A stretch of DNA of 64,000 nucleotides from Actinomycetaceae bacterium (lineage in GTDB: Bacteria > Actinomycetota > Actinomycetes > Actinomycetales > Actinomycetaceae): assembly GCA_030528145.1 (NCBI GenBank), contig JAUMZK010000013.1:1-64000 (forward strand). Direction: 5' to 3'. The number at the start of each line of letters is the position of its first letter. Position 1 is the stretch's first letter. This document shows positions 390 through 54,019 of this stretch, in pieces. Made by a program: the position numbers and the translations under genes. Under the pieces are notes generated by a model. The model was given only the letters and a program-made list of their open reading frames with translations. It was not told the DNA's origin and ran no database searches.

Positions 390-497
390 CAAATGCGCGG
401 CGCGCTTGATGCAATCGCTAACCGCAACAACCTCAGACCACCATTGACAACCACCCCTCCACCCACCACCAACCACGTAGAGGAGACCAAACAATGA
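390..497 (+). pseudogene. C-terminal fragment of a phage gene preceding the endolysin
   Basis: An open + frame ends RGALDAIANRNNL..., followed by a Thr/Pro-rich tail and a TGA at 495-497. That TGA overlaps the endolysin start in an ATGA arrangement, as in translationally coupled phage genes. No upstream part of the gene survives, because the neighbouring DNA belongs to the oppositely oriented surface-protein remnant. The family cannot be recognised from about 35 residues. It is reported because the coupling supports a phage origin for this patch. Confidence 0.35.
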
Positions 498-1179
498 AGA
501 ACTGGAATTGGCTTGAAGCCGATGAAAACCGGATCCTGACCAAGCACTACACGCCAGGTAGGAGCAGTAAGCGCATCGATAAGGTAGTAACCCACCACAA
601 TGCAGGAAACCTAACAATCCCCGACATTTACAACGTGTGGCAAACGCGCCCCGCCTCCGCCCACTACCAGGTCGACTCCAACGGTCGGATTGGACAACTC
701 GTGTGGGATAAAGATACCGCCTGGCACGCAGGCAACTGGGATGCTAACACCACCAGTATCGGTATCGAACACGCCGACGCATCCTCAAACCCGTGGCACA
801 TTTCCGACGCCTGTTTGGACAACGGCGCGCACCTTGTTGCGGCGATCTGCCACTTCTACCAACTCGACCGCCCGATGGGGGGAAAGAACGTGTTCGCACA
901 CAGCCACTTCTCGACCACTGAATGCCCAGCTTCCCTCGCAAGTCACCAACGCGTGAAGTATATGGAACGCACCCAATACTGATACGCCCAGATAACTGGC
1001 ACTAAACCCGCCCCAACTCCCGCGCCCGCGAAGCTAGCCTCTGCAACGTCAAATATCGATGCGCTGGCAGACGCAGTCATCCAAGGCGAATATGGCAACG
1101 GCGAGGAGCGCAAGCGCCGACTTGGAGTCAACTACGCCGCTGGCAGCAGCACGTGAACGAAAAGCTTGGCATCGACTAA
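494..1179 (+). pseudogene. Decayed prophage endolysin: N-acetylmuramoyl-L-alanine amidase plus Cpl-7 (CW_7) repeat
   Basis: The intact part (494-982, 162 aa) is an Amidase_2 domain, which cleaves the amide bond between MurNAc and the stem peptide. Zinc-ligand candidates are H34 (THHN), H136 and C144 (TTECP), with AWHAG and IGIEHA motifs also present. It starts at ATG 494 after a GGAG box. A TGA at 980-982 ends the frame. The same frame then continues through an Ala/Pro linker into a typical CW_7 wall-binding repeat (IDALADAVIQGEYGNGEERK, about 1057-1115). The repeat breaks near 1140, apparently by loss of one base, and resumes as QQHVNEKLGID with TAA at 1177-1179. The gene therefore carries two lesions. 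The amidase domain could still be made alone, without its wall-binding domain. Confidence 0.7.
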
Positions 1180-48288: not shown

Positions 48289-49683
48289 ATGGCAAAAAGC
48301 AAGGTTAGTTTTAGTTGCAGTGAATGCGGGTGGCAGACGCCAAAATGGGTGGGGCAATGTCGTCAGTGTGGGGCGTGGGGTTCTATTTCTGAGGACGCCT
48401 CCCCGACTTCGCGCTCCCAGGTGGCGGTTCCGTCTGTCCCAGCCGTGCCTATCGGGAGTGTTGACGCGCGGGCAGCAACAAGACGATCGACAGGTGTGGG
48501 GGAACTGGATCGGGTTCTGGGTGGGGGCATAGTTCCGGGCGCAGTGGTGTTACTAGCGGGCGAACCGGGGGTGGGTAAGTCCACGTTGTTGTTGGATGTT
48601 GCGGCAAAGGCGGCGAAATTTGCGCGAGATTTTGGGGCGGGACCGGTACTGTATTTGACGGGCGAAGAGTCGGCGTCCCAGGTGCGGTTGCGGGCAACGC
48701 GCATTGGTGCGTTGGATGATGCTTTGCTGTTGGCTGCAGAAAACGATTTGGGGCGGGCGCTGGGGCATATTGCGCAGCATGAACCGTCCTTGGTTGTTGC
48801 AGATTCGGTGCAAACTTTCGCAGATAGCAGTGTTGAGGGTGCGCCAGGTGGGGTGGCACAGGTCCGTCAGGTTGCTGCCAGTTTTATTGCGGTAGCAAAA
48901 ACACATAATATTCCAGTGCTGCTGGTGGGGCACGTAACCAAGGATGGGGGTATTGCCGGACCACGCGTGTTGGAACATTTGGTGGATGTGGTTTGTAATT
49001 TCGAGGGCGATAGGCATGCCCGCCTACGCCTGCTGCGGGCGGTGAAAAACCGGTACGGTCCCACCGATGAGGTGGGTTGTTTTGAGTTGAACGACCACGG
49101 CATTGTGGGGTTAGCGGATCCGTCAGGACTGTTTTTGTCCCAATCTGAGGGCGGAGTTCCGGGAACATGCATTACCGTGTCGTTGGAGGGGCGTCGTCCA
49201 ATGCCCACCGAGGTACAAGCCTTGGTGGCTACGAACAGTTTGGGTGGGAGCCCGCGCCGTACCACTTCGGGTGTGGATTATTCGCGCACAGCAATGATTT
49301 TGGCGGTGTGCGCAGCCCGTTTGGGTCTGGATTTTGGCAGTCGCGATGTTTACGTAGCCACCGTGGGGGGCGCGAAAACTTCCGAGCCTGCCGTCGATTT
49401 ACCGGTCGCCCTCGCCATTATTTCAGCGGCAGCAGACCGCAGTATCCGCCCAGGACTGGTGGCTTTTGGCGAGGTGTCCTTGACGGGGGAATTGCGCGCT
49501 ACTGTGGGGTTGGCGCGGCGGCTGTCAGAGGCTGCGCGTCTGGGTTTTGAGGTGGCGCTGGTACCCCATCAGGGTGCCGAGGACGTGCGCGCACCGCAGG
49601 GTATTACGCTGCTGCCGGTTCGGAACCTTACAGAAGCGGCACGCGCGGCTTTGGTGGCTAATACGGAAGCCGGCTCGCCTTAG
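48289..49683 (+). CDS. radA: DNA repair protein RadA/Sms
   Basis: 464 aa. RecA-like ATPase/helicase that helps branch migration in homologous recombination and natural transformation. Seen: the zinc finger C10, C13, C24, C27, Walker A GEPGVGKST, Walker B region LVVADSVQT, the RadA-specific KNRYG (usually KNRFG), and a C-terminal Lon-like domain with DYSRTAMILAV and VALAIISAAADR. The open frame extends back to 48106 over ktrA; ATG 48289 gives the canonical N-terminus. Its stop overlaps a convergent small gene by 4 bases. Confidence 0.95.
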   Translation: MAKSKVSFSCSECGWQTPKWVGQCRQCGAWGSISEDASPTSRSQVAVPSVPAVPIGSVDARAATRRSTGVGELDRVLGGGIVPGAVVLLAGEPGVGKSTLLLDVAAKAAKFARDFGAGPVLYLTGEESASQVRLRATRIGALDDALLLAAENDLGRALGHIAQHEPSLVVADSVQTFADSSVEGAPGGVAQVRQVAASFIAVAKTHNIPVLLVGHVTKDGGIAGPRVLEHLVDVVCNFEGDRHARLRLLRAVKNRYGPTDEVGCFELNDHGIVGLADPSGLFLSQSEGGVPGTCITVSLEGRRPMPTEVQALVATNSLGGSPRRTTSGVDYSRTAMILAVCAARLGLDFGSRDVYVATVGGAKTSEPAVDLPVALAIISAAADRSIRPGLVAFGEVSLTGELRATVGLARRLSEAARLGFEVALVPHQGAEDVRAPQGITLLPVRNLTEAARAALVANTEAGSP

Positions 49684-49952
49684 TCGCGAATGTATTTCGC
49701 CCACACTAAGCGTCCCTCTACCGGCACTATTTGCACCAAAGAACAATGTTGGTAATAAGGTTCCGTAAAGTCGCGGTGGATACCGTCTACCGATTGATCC
49801 TCGGAAATCTTCAGTTGCGCCAAGGCTTTTGCTATCTGCTGCGGCGCAACCGATTTTGCGTTCGTGCTGGCGCGCACGAGTGCCATAAATGCCTCGTAAC
49901 TGGACCGATCCGCCAGTTGGTGGCGTTTACTGAAATTTTCGTCCTCGCGCAA
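49680..49952 (-). CDS. Small hypothetical protein, last gene of an envelope locus
   Basis: 90 aa, soluble, slightly basic, with no signal peptide or known motif that I recognise. It begins TTG at 49952, six bases after the stop of the preceding substrate-binding-like gene. No good ribosome site is present, so translation may depend on coupling, or start at a later ATG (EAFMALV). The composition looks protein-like (SYEAFMALVRAS, EGRLVWAKYIRD). It ends convergently against radA with a 4-base overlap. Role unknown; context links it to the two upstream genes. Confidence 0.6.
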   Translation of the reverse strand: MREDENFSKRHQLADRSSYEAFMALVRASTNAKSVAPQQIAKALAQLKISEDQSVDGIHRDFTEPYYQHCSLVQIVPVEGRLVWAKYIRD

Positions 49953-49958
49953 TGACGG

Positions 49959-50921
49959 TTATTTGGAATCTGTTTGCATCAGCGTTTTGGCTTCTTCAAA
50001 TCCGATAGCGGCTGCAGTTTTAGCGGTAGCTTCTGGTGTGCCGAGGGCGTATATGTCGCGACTATCAACATTTTGGTCGACCAACATATCCCGGAAACTC
50101 GCATTTGCCGCATTGCTGGCAACCAGAATTTTCGCGTTTACGCTGCGCATTTTAATTTTGCTAATAATATTCACAGTTTGTTTGGTATCCGCAGTTATTA
50201 CTATGCAAGCGTTGCGCGAGGTTCCTATTAGCTTCCCCATTTTGTCATTGTCGGCAATTTCTTCTGGGGTGATTTTTACTTTTTCTTGCCTTTGCAATTG
50301 CGTATTTCCCACCGAAATTATGGGCGAACATTGTAAAGTTTTCAGTGCTTCTGTAATCGCTCCGACGTGTTGCTTTTTCTGCCCCATTCCGTACCACGCT
50401 TGGGTACTGTGCTCAGCGCGGCTTTGCGCATACGGCAGAATTATGGGTAAGTTTGCGTCCTGCGCTGCGTCAGTCAGCGCTTTCGTGTGGTCCCCGTTTG
50501 TTATGGCGAGGACGCCCGCCACATTTGCGTCTGCAAGTTTCGCAATTGCTTCCTGGGCTCCGCTGTCGCTGCCTTGGTCGGATACTACTATGGTCTTTAC
50601 GTTGGTGCCGGCTTGAAAAAGCCGCCATTTTGCTATGGAAATGCCTTCCGCGTTGCCGTCGTAACCGCGCCCTTCTGCAGGGTTATCAGTATAGGAAACC
50701 ACTATCCCGATTTTGAGCCCGTCCGGCACGCTACCTACTGTTTGTTCTACTTTCACGGCAGCAGTTCCGGTCCCGCCCGCTGCAGGTGAAAGATAGTGCC
50801 ACGCCGCAACCGTGCCGCCCCCCAACACAGTTGCCAGAAGAACACCGATGACTGCTATTTTTATGACGAAGTGGCAGTTTTTTGGCGCACTGTCGCCTTT
50901 GCTGTTCTTAACTTCTTGCAT
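49959..50921 (-). CDS. Membrane-anchored periplasmic-binding-protein-like protein
   Basis: 320 aa. One N-terminal transmembrane segment (about 20-44) and an extracytoplasmic domain that reads like a type I periplasmic binding fold. Strand-like starts include LKIGIVVSYTDNPAEGRGYDG, VKTIVVSDQGSDSGAQEAI, VAGVLAITNG, IISVGNTQ, CIVITAD and AKILVASNAAN. Branched-chain amino-acid receptors have this organisation, but no permease or ATPase is encoded nearby and it has no lipobox. It may thus be a sensor or scaffold. It lies 14 bases after the 913-aa gene. Assignment to the fold is by pattern only. Confidence 0.7.
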   Translation of the reverse strand: MQEVKNSKGDSAPKNCHFVIKIAVIGVLLATVLGGGTVAAWHYLSPAAGGTGTAAVKVEQTVGSVPDGLKIGIVVSYTDNPAEGRGYDGNAEGISIAKWRLFQAGTNVKTIVVSDQGSDSGAQEAIAKLADANVAGVLAITNGDHTKALTDAAQDANLPIILPYAQSRAEHSTQAWYGMGQKKQHVGAITEALKTLQCSPIISVGNTQLQRQEKVKITPEEIADNDKMGKLIGTSRNACIVITADTKQTVNIISKIKMRSVNAKILVASNAANASFRDMLVDQNVDSRDIYALGTPEATAKTAAAIGFEEAKTLMQTDSK

Positions 50922-50935
50922 ATTATTCTGATTCG

Positions 50936-53677
50936 TTATTTGTCACTGTTGTCCAGGTGGAACGAATACCATGCGGGCGGTAGCACGGCACCGGGGTCAG
51001 CAAATCTGCCGGGGGTCTCCAAACGCGCCAGGGCTGCACGAATCGCAGATTGTTCCAGTATTGTGGCGGTTTGTGCGGGGCGTTGCGCGGCTTTCGTGGC
51101 GCTGGTGTGGGCGCTGGTTGCCGCCAGTTTCACGTTAGTTACTCCCAGGTCGGCTGGTGGAACGGGCACCGCCTCTAGCAGTCCCCCACTTTTGCCCTCG
51201 TTCAACCCCATGTCTGCCAGCAGGCGGGTGATATCTGCCAGCAACAGGGATCCTACCGCATTGGTATCTTTCACAGCTCTGTCACTAACGCCGTGAATTT
51301 CTTGCCGGTTTTTCGCAAATAGTTTCGAGGTAGCAGCAGCGGTACGGTTGTTGGCGCCCTCGACGTGGGTACGCACGCCTTCTACTGCCGCTGTTCCATG
51401 GTCGTTTAGGCGCCGCGCCTCCCCGGATATCGTGCGCGCTAACCCGCCAAATGCTGTCGAATTTGAGTTCTGCACGGCATTTCGGGTGGCGTTTGTGCTC
51501 ACGAGCAAATTGGTTTTGACCCGGTTTATCTTGTTCCCGCTGGCGCGCTGGGATTCACCCAAATACGTATCGAGGTCCGCCGAAACAGTCGCAATTTCCG
51601 TAGATACAGTACCCGCATTTTTGGCAAGCTGCTCGAAAACGTTGAGACTCTGCGAGTACTTTTCTTCCAAGGCTTTTAGTCGCTCGTTTTGCAGGGCGAC
51701 GTTCTTGTTTCGCTCGGTTTTCACGCCGTCAATGGCTTTATTTATTTGGTCGAGGACGGCGCGCGCCTCTATAATTTCTTTCCGTCCGCCTGCCGCAGTG
51801 GTGTTGTCGGCTGTTGGGGCGACAATTTCACGAACGTCAGTTATCTTTTGGCGAATTTCTTGGTCCCTCTTAAACATGGTTTCTTGCGAAGTAGGAACCA
51901 GAGCTTTATCGCCCTCGTAAGTGCCTTTACCTGCTTCATCTGTGGTAGGGCAGTCGGTACCGTCCAGCAGTTTTGCCAGTTCGAGGGCGGTGGCTTCGTT
52001 CATTTGGTATTTGCCCGACAATTCTGGGTCTTCACTCTTAGTTTTCCCAGACGCAATGCAAACTATCCGTTTTGCCGCACTAATATCTTTATCTTGGTTT
52101 GCACTGAGGTCGGTAACGTTTTTCGCTTTTTCAGCAATTGCGTCGAAATCTTTTTCGAGGCCCTTTAGCGGGCTTTCAAGCTGGACTGTAGCGTCCGCCA
52201 GTGCCGCAATTTTCTGGTCTGTTGCCGGTCCGCCCAGATTTTCTTTTAACTGGTCAATATTTGTGCCCACGTCTTTCAGCTGCGCTTGCAGCATTTGCAC
52301 ATTTTTGACCGCATCGTCTTGCGTGCCCGCTTTGAGCCTTTTCACCAGTTCCGCACCCTGTTGACGTTGCGCGTCCACCAGTTGCCGCATTTCAGCATCG
52401 GCGTACCATATTTCGCATGTCAGACTGTCTGTTTGGCACGTGTGTTGGTCGGGATTTTGCGGTCCGAATAACCTATCTAGGTCTGCCAAAATCAACTTTT
52501 GACATTCGTCAGTAGTGTTTGACAATGCATCCAAACGCGCGGATAGACCTTTAATTACTTGCAAAACCGACGGCGCTGAAGTTTGCCCTGCAGTTTCTGT
52601 ACCTTCTGCCGCTTCACCTGTACTTGCGACTTCGTTTACAGTAATTTTGCAATTTTGGTTATCGACTGCGATGATGGGCGCAGGCGCATCCGGGTTTCCT
52701 AACAATTCTTTTACGACCGCCGTAGTTTGTTGCAAACGCCCGGCAACACTGGAGTAAGCCTGGCTAAACAGGTCTTTTGCACGCGAATCGATGCCCCCGA
52801 GCCTTGCCACCAGGTCACGCGTAGACATTTCCACCTGCCCGTTTGAAGCCTTCAGGTCGGCTATGGTTTTGCGTCCAATTTGGCCGCTAGCACCCATCAG
52901 CGTCTGCCGCGCTTTTGCCAGCGATTGACCAGATTCTCCCACCATATTTTGCGCGCCTTGCAGTGTCTTAATAGTGGATACCACCAGTTCGGTTTCTTGT
53001 TTTTGCACAGCCGTATTCAGATTTATACCAAAGCCTGGCTGCACAATTATGTCAAAACTTGGTACGTGAAAGTTTTTGGCATTCATTACGAGGACGAACC
53101 TGGCAGTATCGCCTTTAATTCCGGTAATTCCTGCCCACTGAATAATAGTGTTGGATTTGGAGTCAAGACCCACAACCCCATTGGTTCCCGTGCGGATCTT
53201 ACCGGTATTTGCTCCGTCCTCTTTTATTACTTGCTTTGCCTGGTTACCTGGCAATCGTACTGACGCTGCTGAACTCATAGGGGTGGATACCCACCGGGTT
53301 TGCGTTACAGTTTTGCCGTTCGCTTTAGCACTGATTTTTTCGAGTCTACCGGTTTGGTTATAGAGTGCCACTTCCACGCGCACCACCCCAGTTTTTCCTG
53401 CGATAGTTTGTGGATCGCTGGTAGTTTTACCGTTATAAGAATATGAAGTTACGACGCGCACGGGAAGGTTTTGCAAAATGGTAGGCTCCATGCTTTGCCG
53501 CCCGTCAGCTTTGACTTCGACTATTTGCCCTTTTCCATTTAAGTTTAATCGCACTATATCTGCGTTACCGATTTCGGCTAACGCCATATTTGAGGCAACA
53601 CCTACGCTGACAATTATCAAACTAACTGCTGCGACAATTGCAATAATACTGCGCTTCTTAGAACTCGAAAAACCCAC
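50936..53677 (-). CDS. Large exported coiled-coil protein, unknown
   Basis: 913 aa. N-terminal signal anchor (residues about 9-33), then a beta-rich domain to about 210, then a long Ala/Gln/Lys/Asp-rich region predicted to be helical and coiled-coil to about 800. The C-terminus is Pro/Ala-rich, without a membrane helix or sorting signal. A cysteine cluster sits near the middle (DECQKL, HTCQTDSLTCEIW). I do not recognise the family. The pattern resembles the extracellular part of YhgE/Pip-type proteins, without their membrane domain. It starts at GTG 53677 after CGGAG. It leads a three-gene unit with the binding-protein-like gene and a small gene. Confidence 0.75.
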   Translation of the reverse strand: MGFSSSKKRSIIAIVAAVSLIIVSVGVASNMALAEIGNADIVRLNLNGKGQIVEVKADGRQSMEPTILQNLPVRVVTSYSYNGKTTSDPQTIAGKTGVVRVEVALYNQTGRLEKISAKANGKTVTQTRWVSTPMSSAASVRLPGNQAKQVIKEDGANTGKIRTGTNGVVGLDSKSNTIIQWAGITGIKGDTARFVLVMNAKNFHVPSFDIIVQPGFGINLNTAVQKQETELVVSTIKTLQGAQNMVGESGQSLAKARQTLMGASGQIGRKTIADLKASNGQVEMSTRDLVARLGGIDSRAKDLFSQAYSSVAGRLQQTTAVVKELLGNPDAPAPIIAVDNQNCKITVNEVASTGEAAEGTETAGQTSAPSVLQVIKGLSARLDALSNTTDECQKLILADLDRLFGPQNPDQHTCQTDSLTCEIWYADAEMRQLVDAQRQQGAELVKRLKAGTQDDAVKNVQMLQAQLKDVGTNIDQLKENLGGPATDQKIAALADATVQLESPLKGLEKDFDAIAEKAKNVTDLSANQDKDISAAKRIVCIASGKTKSEDPELSGKYQMNEATALELAKLLDGTDCPTTDEAGKGTYEGDKALVPTSQETMFKRDQEIRQKITDVREIVAPTADNTTAAGGRKEIIEARAVLDQINKAIDGVKTERNKNVALQNERLKALEEKYSQSLNVFEQLAKNAGTVSTEIATVSADLDTYLGESQRASGNKINRVKTNLLVSTNATRNAVQNSNSTAFGGLARTISGEARRLNDHGTAAVEGVRTHVEGANNRTAAATSKLFAKNRQEIHGVSDRAVKDTNAVGSLLLADITRLLADMGLNEGKSGGLLEAVPVPPADLGVTNVKLAATSAHTSATKAAQRPAQTATILEQSAIRAALARLETPGRFADPGAVLPPAWYSFHLDNSDK

Positions 53678-54019
53678 TGAACAATACTCCGCACTGGGAA
53701 AATTCTTAGGACTAACCCAGTTTACACGGAAGTTTTACCCACACTTCCTCTGAGCATCCCAAACGTGCAGAAAACAACCATTATTTGTTGAGAATTTAAT
53801 CACCCATTTTGTGGCGACATTAAAGAAAAATTCACAGCTTTGCATTTTTCTACACTTCGCAGCAGTATAAGGCATCTTAGTGGATTGGTTTATTTTTATT
53901 TGTCGGCTTTTCAGAGCCAAATTTTGTGTACCGAAACGACCCCACACTAAAGCGGGCACGCCCTGCCTCGAAGAACTAAACCAACAGTTAGCCAAAGTAG
54001 CCCGCAAGCTTCGTCCTCG
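53678..54019. other. AT-rich intergenic spacer upstream of the envelope locus
   Basis: 342 bases without a convincing gene. The stretch 53760-53940 is clearly richer in A and T than its surroundings. It should hold the promoter of the 913-aa gene (a TAAACT on the minus strand near 53720 is a weak -10 candidate) and the end of the next gene. The open frames here have no family resemblance or ribosome site. Confidence 0.5.

What the first reader, a model, noticed from the sequence alone, without database searches (positions are those of the whole stretch)
49680..53677. Unrecognised three-gene cell-envelope locus
A 913-residue exported coiled-coil protein, a membrane-anchored protein with a periplasmic-binding fold pattern and a small soluble protein are arranged as one operon behind an AT-rich spacer. 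There is no ABC permease, ATPase, kinase or sortase partner, so this is not a normal transporter. A long extracellular rod with a ligand-binding partner could be a surface sensor, adhesion or wall-remodelling device. This is the best gene-based candidate for an undescribed system in the window.
Basis: partly seen in the sequence, partly recalled or inferred. Interest (0 to 1): 0.62.

Follow-up and report, generated by a model that had tools for sequence, protein, structure and literature searches.

The report
Orphan pieces of undescribed secretion system
Two of the three supposed genes are real and in relatives belong to an apparently undescribed kind of bacterial type VII protein secretion machine, but in this genome they are an inserted, motor-less remnant and the third 'gene' is only the broken-off end of the second.

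Summary
The 913-aa exported protein ('BIG', 50936-53677, -) and the binding-fold protein ('PBP') are real. The third 'gene' is not separate: it lies in the same frame as the PBP, behind a single TAA (49959-49961), and in every relative examined it is the PBP's C-terminus. In 27 other loci, from Actinomycetaceae, Micrococcaceae, Microbacteriaceae, Propionibacteriaceae, Nocardioidaceae and Geodermatophilaceae, BIG and PBP are adjacent in the same order. There they lie with an FHA-FtsK/SpoIIIE ATPase of EssC type (27/27) and usually a one-TM Ser/Thr kinase (25/27). WXG100-like and RHS-repeat proteins are often nearby. The relatives therefore form a type VII secretion (T7SS) locus. It differs from T7SSd, which coexists with it in Winkia neuii, and matches none of T7SSa-j in the one survey I could read. 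BIG has no Pfam, NCBIfam or PDB relative; its N-domain belongs to a wider unnamed exported family. In the window genome (a Winkia-genus species) the pair is a ~4.3-kb insert between radA and a DUF4232-like gene, an empty site in two congeners. No cognate ATPase, kinase or WXG100 gene lies at the locus. So the locus is a remnant of an apparently undescribed T7SS variant. Roles of BIG (envelope rod) and PBP (ligand sensor) are inferred.

The parts
50936..53677 (-). BIG: 913-aa Sec-exported protein, N-terminal beta domain plus long helical (coiled-coil-like) region; T7SS-linked family
   Evidence: ORF; one N-terminal hydrophobic segment only; AF2; family alignment A3; five Cys conserved 14/14
53030..53572 (-). 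Conserved N-terminal domain of BIG (about 190 aa, motif LPVRVxTxY...G..G..)
   Evidence: Profile A6 from 25 loci; no Pfam or PDB match; wider family in 41/396 Actinomycetota genomes
51017..53014 (-). Helical region of BIG (residues 222-887), including a helix predicted over residues 660-824
   Evidence: AF2 model of modest confidence; Foldseek finds only generic coiled coils
49680..50921 (-). PBP: type-I periplasmic-binding-fold protein with N-terminal TM anchor, one gene split by an in-frame stop
   Evidence: Read-through translation; alignment A4; AF2 and Foldseek; intact 419-aa homologue in Winkia neuii
49959..49961 (-). In-frame TAA that interrupts the PBP gene after codon 320
   Evidence: Sequence; intact copies in the other 11 aligned loci
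49680..49952 (-).
   Evidence: Same frame; aligned to PBP C-termini, invariant W407 kept; this part carries the last helices and strands of the fold
49684..54019 (.). Inserted segment between radA and the DUF4232-like gene; absent at the same site in two other Winkia-genus genomes
   Evidence: lower GC3 (0.51-0.52) than neighbouring genes (0.58-0.64)
53678..54019 (.). AT-rich spacer upstream of BIG; no significant trace of a WXG100, kinase or EssC gene
   Evidence: GC 0.43; tblastn of relatives' locus proteins finds nothing significant there

Best explanation
BIG and PBP are envelope components of an apparently undescribed variant of the type VII secretion system found across Actinomycetota. 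In intact loci the machine is built from an FHA-bearing FtsK/SpoIIIE ATPase (EssC type, the motor), a one-TM Ser/Thr kinase, a WXG100-like protein, BIG, PBP, and probably RHS-repeat proteins as cargo. Proposed working (inferred): BIG is exported by Sec and its helical rod spans the cell wall, filling the place of EsaA in T7SSb or TsdI in T7SSd. The anchored PBP reads an extracellular ligand and acts on BIG and/or the kinase. Kinase phosphorylation is read by the FHA domain of the ATPase and turns secretion on. In the window genome the BIG-PBP pair sits alone: it was inserted between radA and its old neighbour, the motor, kinase and WXG100 genes are not there, and the PBP carries a premature stop. 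It is therefore most likely a decaying remnant that does not secrete.
For: Shown: 27/27 other BIG loci have PBP adjacent on the same strand (gap or overlap under about 80 nt), EssC in 27/27, kinase in 25/27, WXG100-like in 16/27, RHS-type family in 17/25 loci clustered. The 14 other family genomes were found with the BIG profile, without reference to EssC, and all have the EssC at the locus. ATPase has FHA and FtsK_SpoIIIE domains with core FHA residues invariant (A5). Kinases have one TM at about residue 390 where full length. BIG/PBP occur with at least three separate EssC branches, so the link is not one frozen neighbourhood. Winkia neuii also has a separate T7SSd-like locus. Window: EssC not found at E<=1e-90, only generic FtsK-like proteins, no significant trace of partner genes near the insert; empty site in G001/G002; window BIG and PBP group with G111/G116, not with Winkia neuii. 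PBP fold.
Against: BIG is still intact over 913 codons and the reading frame after the PBP stop is open to its natural end, so decay, if real, is recent, or the pair has a use without the motor. The TAA is seen in one assembly only and could be a sequencing error. BIG has no C-terminal TM, unlike EsaA or TsdI, so the conduit analogy is weak. No direct evidence ties PBP to a ligand, or BIG to PBP, or either to secretion. The 13 named non-family loci were found through EssC and are therefore biased towards it.
Confidence: 0.7

Rival explanations
1. The pair works on its own in the window species as a surface sensor or wall-binding rod, independent of secretion; the nearby EssC in relatives is a frequent but not obligate companion, and the TAA is a sequencing error or is read through.
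For: BIG intact; frame after the TAA open and conserved in kind; the genome is 99.97% complete yet lacks the cognate EssC. Other proteins with the same N-domain occur without EssC, two directly beside MMPL-like transporters.
Against: All 27 other loci carry EssC, nearly all a kinase; the lone pair is the single exception. The AF2 model puts the last helices and strands of the binding fold after the TAA.
Confidence: 0.17
2. The pair serves a different secretion ATPase in trans, for example the 902-aa FHA-FtsK protein on contig C8 together with the solitary WXG100 beside groEL on C3.
For: Both exist in the same genome; 44% identity over the first ATPase domain.
Against: The 902-aa protein has orthologues in G002, which lacks BIG and PBP, so it has its own job; it is much shorter than the BIG-linked EssC. 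The PBP is broken.
Confidence: 0.08
3. The pair is simply T7SSd with an unrecognised TsdI.
For: Similar parts list: FHA-EssC, kinase, WXG100, one large exported protein.
Against: Winkia neuii (G001) has both: a kinase - small TM protein - 1537-aa Ig-like protein - 1503-aa EssC cluster on C15, and the BIG locus on C3. hhalign of BIG against the TsdI-like protein gives probability 1%. The main BIG-linked EssC clade is separate from the T7SSd-like EssC.
Confidence: 0.04

Closest known systems
T7SSd (Garrett, Higginson and Palmer 2024, PMC11217815)
   Same: Actinomycetota; FHA-bearing EssC-type ATPase, TM Ser/Thr kinase, WXG100 protein, one large Sec-exported protein, RHS cargo; no ubiquitin-like gene noticed at the loci
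   Different: BIG (about 950 aa, beta domain plus helical rod, no C-terminal TM) instead of TsdI (1,500-1,650 aa, Ig-like, C-terminal TM); an extra periplasmic-binding-fold protein; no TsdH-like gene recognised; both systems coexist in Winkia neuii
T7SSb EsaA / YueB
   Same: Large, mostly extracellular protein of a T7SS locus, proposed to span the envelope
   Different: BIG has one N-terminal hydrophobic segment only; no family-library match to YhgE/Pip or EsaA models; EsaA not among the 50 best Foldseek hits
Type-I periplasmic/solute-binding proteins (HAAT/LivK family, Peripla_BP_6)
   Same: Fold (Foldseek E 4.6e-11), weak Pfam matches in half of the members, membrane-anchored
   Different: Encoded with a secretion ATPase; no ABC permease or ATPase seen at the loci; very divergent (12-16% identity to solved structures)
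MMPL-linked exported proteins with the same N-domain (L168, L170)
   Same: Homologous N-terminal exported domain
   Different: About 630 aa, next to an MMPL/RND-like transporter and a TetR-like regulator, no PBP or EssC match in those loci

Membership tests
Type VII secretion system (related loci) | FtsK/SpoIIIE-type EccC/EssC ATPase encoded at the locus | tested here: met
   27/27 related loci
Type VII secretion system (related loci) | WXG100 (EsxA-like) protein | tested here: met
   WXG100-like in 16/27 loci within the stretch read; Pfam E 4e-4 and 5e-5 for two members, below the curated cut-off
Type VII secretion system (window locus) | EssC ATPase, WXG100 | tested here: not met
   None at the locus; cognate EssC absent from the genome; one solitary WXG100 elsewhere
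T7SSd | TsdI-type large Ig-like protein with C-terminal TM | tested here: not met
   BIG has no C-terminal TM; hhalign probability 1%
T7SSd | TsdC clade of the ATPase | tested here: not met
   FastTree of 104 EssC: the main BIG clade is separate from the Winkia T7SSd-like EssC; no published TsdC reference sequences were included
T7SSa (ESX) | EccB, EccD, EccE, MycP at the locus | tested here: inconclusive
   No recurrent family of that kind among the clustered neighbours of 25 loci; ESX profiles were not searched one by one
YhgE/Pip, EsaA | Match to the family models; multi-TM C-terminus | tested here: not met
   No match in Pfam or NCBIfam for 14 members; one TM
Type-I periplasmic-binding fold | Two-lobed Rossmann-like fold | tested here: met
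   AF2 pLDDT 77.8, Foldseek probability 1.00 to LivK/LivJ; Peripla_BP_6 in 6/12 members
ABC importer | ABC permease and ATPase beside the binding protein | tested here: not met
   None recognised in the window neighbourhood or recurring in the clustered loci

The most novel reading that the evidence does not exclude
An undescribed T7SS subtype of Actinomycetota whose export is gated by a ligand: a periplasmic-binding-fold receptor and a wall-spanning rod report an outside signal through a kinase to the FHA domain of the ATPase. To my knowledge it would be the first T7SS with a dedicated small-molecule-type receptor.
Probability: 0.33. Interest if true: 0.82.

Novelty: new variant of a known kind. 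Interest (0 to 1): 0.58.

Why it matters
The published subtype survey lists ten T7SS types, two of them in Actinomycetota. These loci point to a further Actinomycetota type with two envelope parts not described there, in common soil, plant and mucosal genera. A binding-fold receptor wired to a secretion ATPase would make a testable answer to the open question of how T7SS firing is triggered, and an EsaA-like role without EsaA homology would bear on how T7SS cargo crosses the wall. For the window itself it corrects the annotation: two genes, not three, in an inserted remnant.

Tried and rejected
Pfam, NCBIfam and PDB sequence searches of the single proteins: nothing. BIG member scans: only chance coiled-coil matches. 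A G124 match to the BIG profile (E 0.008) has no BIG-like protein at the place and was discarded. Search for traces of kinase, EssC or WXG100 in the insert: nothing significant. BIG = TsdI: hhalign probability 1%. Foldseek of BIG: generic coiled coils only. EssC-like 902-aa protein on C8 as the cognate motor: it has orthologues in a BIG-less congener. Literature: Zhang et al. 2012 (PMC3482391) and the Actinotignum schaalii genome paper (PMC5720513) mention T7SS but not this pair in the passages searched; five further searches gave nothing closer. Supplements of Garrett et al. could not be read, and no preprints are held.

Full report
What is there. On the minus strand the window has a 913-codon ORF (BIG, 50936-53677), a 320-codon ORF (49959-50921) and a 90-codon ORF (49680-49952). 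The last two are in one frame: the 320-codon ORF ends in TAA at 49961-49959 and the frame continues CCG TCA TTG into the 90-codon ORF. In the alignment of 12 homologues the 90 codons fall on the conserved C-terminus. An AlphaFold2 model of the read-through (stop codon read as Gln for modelling) puts the last helices and strands of a type-I periplasmic-binding fold in that part, and Foldseek's best match is LivK. So the third gene of the finding is the tail of the second, cut off by a stop codon. Whether that stop is real cannot be told from one assembly.

What the proteins are. BIG has one N-terminal hydrophobic segment and none elsewhere, a conserved N-terminal domain of about 190 aa and a long helical remainder (AF2 pLDDT 64, pTM 0.36, so only the broad architecture is usable). 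Five cysteines are kept in all 14 aligned members. It has no match in Pfam, NCBIfam or the PDB by sequence, and Foldseek returns only generic coiled coils. The PBP is anchored by an N-terminal TM helix in the window and several relatives, and carries a lipobox in others.

The surroundings in relatives. A two-sequence BIG profile found the protein in 14 other genomes of the family besides the window's (16 of 213 matched, one being spurious). In all 14 it is next to the PBP and to an FHA-FtsK/SpoIIIE ATPase of about 1,400-1,460 aa. A search with that ATPase in named genomes gave 13 further BIG-PBP loci, in Arthrobacter, Paeniglutamicibacter, Rothia, Curtobacterium, Frigoribacterium, another Microbacteriaceae strain, Microlunatus, Nocardioides and Blastococcus; these are biased towards the ATPase by construction. 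Over 27 loci: PBP adjacent on the same strand 27, ATPase 27, kinase 25, WXG100-like 16. RHS-repeat proteins recur. These are the usual marks of a type VII secretion locus with cargo. BIG-PBP go with at least three separate branches of the ATPase tree, which strengthens the functional link.

Relation to named T7SS types. Garrett, Higginson and Palmer 2024 (PMC11217815) define T7SSa-j; in Actinomycetota only T7SSa and T7SSd. T7SSd has TsdA, TsdC, TsdD (kinase), TsdH and TsdI (large, Ig-like, C-terminal TM). Winkia neuii and another genome of its genus carry a cluster of just that make-up (kinase 578 aa, 126-aa protein, 1537-1544-aa Ig-like protein with C-terminal TM, about 1,500-aa ATPase), while the BIG locus of W. 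neuii is a second, separate cluster. BIG and the TsdI-like protein do not align (hhalign probability 1%), and the main BIG-linked ATPase clade is separate from the T7SSd-like one (FastTree, no published TsdC references included). The core FHA residues are invariant in the BIG-linked ATPase and the kinase is a one-TM protein, so phosphorylation control, proposed by those authors for T7SSd, is plausible here too; it is untested.

The window copy. Between radA and the DUF4232-like gene, G001 and G002 have nothing: in G002 the two genes' stop codons overlap by four bases. In the window genome about 4.3 kb (49684-54019) lies there, with lower GC3 than its neighbours, and the window BIG and PBP group with G111 and G116 of other genera rather than with W. 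neuii (long branches, short search). The cognate ATPase is not in the genome at E<=1e-90; what remains is a 902-aa FHA-FtsK protein with orthologues in BIG-less G002, the ordinary FtsK, and a lone WXG100 beside groEL. No significant trace of ATPase, kinase or WXG100 lies in the insert. The most economical reading is acquisition of the pair, or of a larger locus since trimmed, followed by decay of the PBP.

Mechanism and confidence. Shown by sequence: the third ORF is part of the PBP in relatives, co-occurrence, domain make-up, insertion. Inferred: BIG as wall-spanning rod, PBP as ligand reader, kinase-FHA switch on the ATPase, RHS and WXG100-like proteins as cargo. That BIG and PBP are T7SS components I hold at about 0.8; that the window copy is a non-secreting remnant at about 0.75; the ligand-gating step at about 0.33. 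That the variant is undescribed rests on the held open-access library only; supplements and preprints were out of reach.

Noticed in passing
L168:7391-9289, L170:7539-9449 (also L162-L167, L169, L171-L176): The N-terminal domain of BIG belongs to a wider unnamed family of exported proteins in Actinomycetota; one type sits directly downstream of an MMPL/RND-like transporter and a TetR-like regulator, others end in a TM helix.
   Followed up: partly
L177:934-12196 (G002) and L178:655-11903 (G001): Winkia-genus genomes carry a T7SSd-like cluster (kinase, small TM protein, 1.5-kaa Ig-like protein, EssC) in a genus not named in the text of the T7SS survey that I read; the window genome has no matching ATPase.
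   Followed up: partly
L041:8644-11352 (G000 C8): 902-aa FHA-TM-FtsK protein beside ligA and a WhiB-like gene, with orthologues in other Winkia-genus genomes; role unknown, possibly another small T7SS-type ATPase.
   Followed up: partly
L044:9608-9946 (G000 C3): Solitary WXG100 protein next to groEL, without any secretion gene nearby.
   Followed up: no
L033, L034, L035, L036: In one group of genomes the BIG-PBP-kinase unit is divergent from a more distant EssC type, suggesting that the envelope pair has been swapped between ATPase lineages.
   Followed up: partly
window 494-982 (+): Short protein at the contig edge that looks like an N-acetylmuramoyl-L-alanine amidase of phage or endolysin type (judged by eye).
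   Followed up: no
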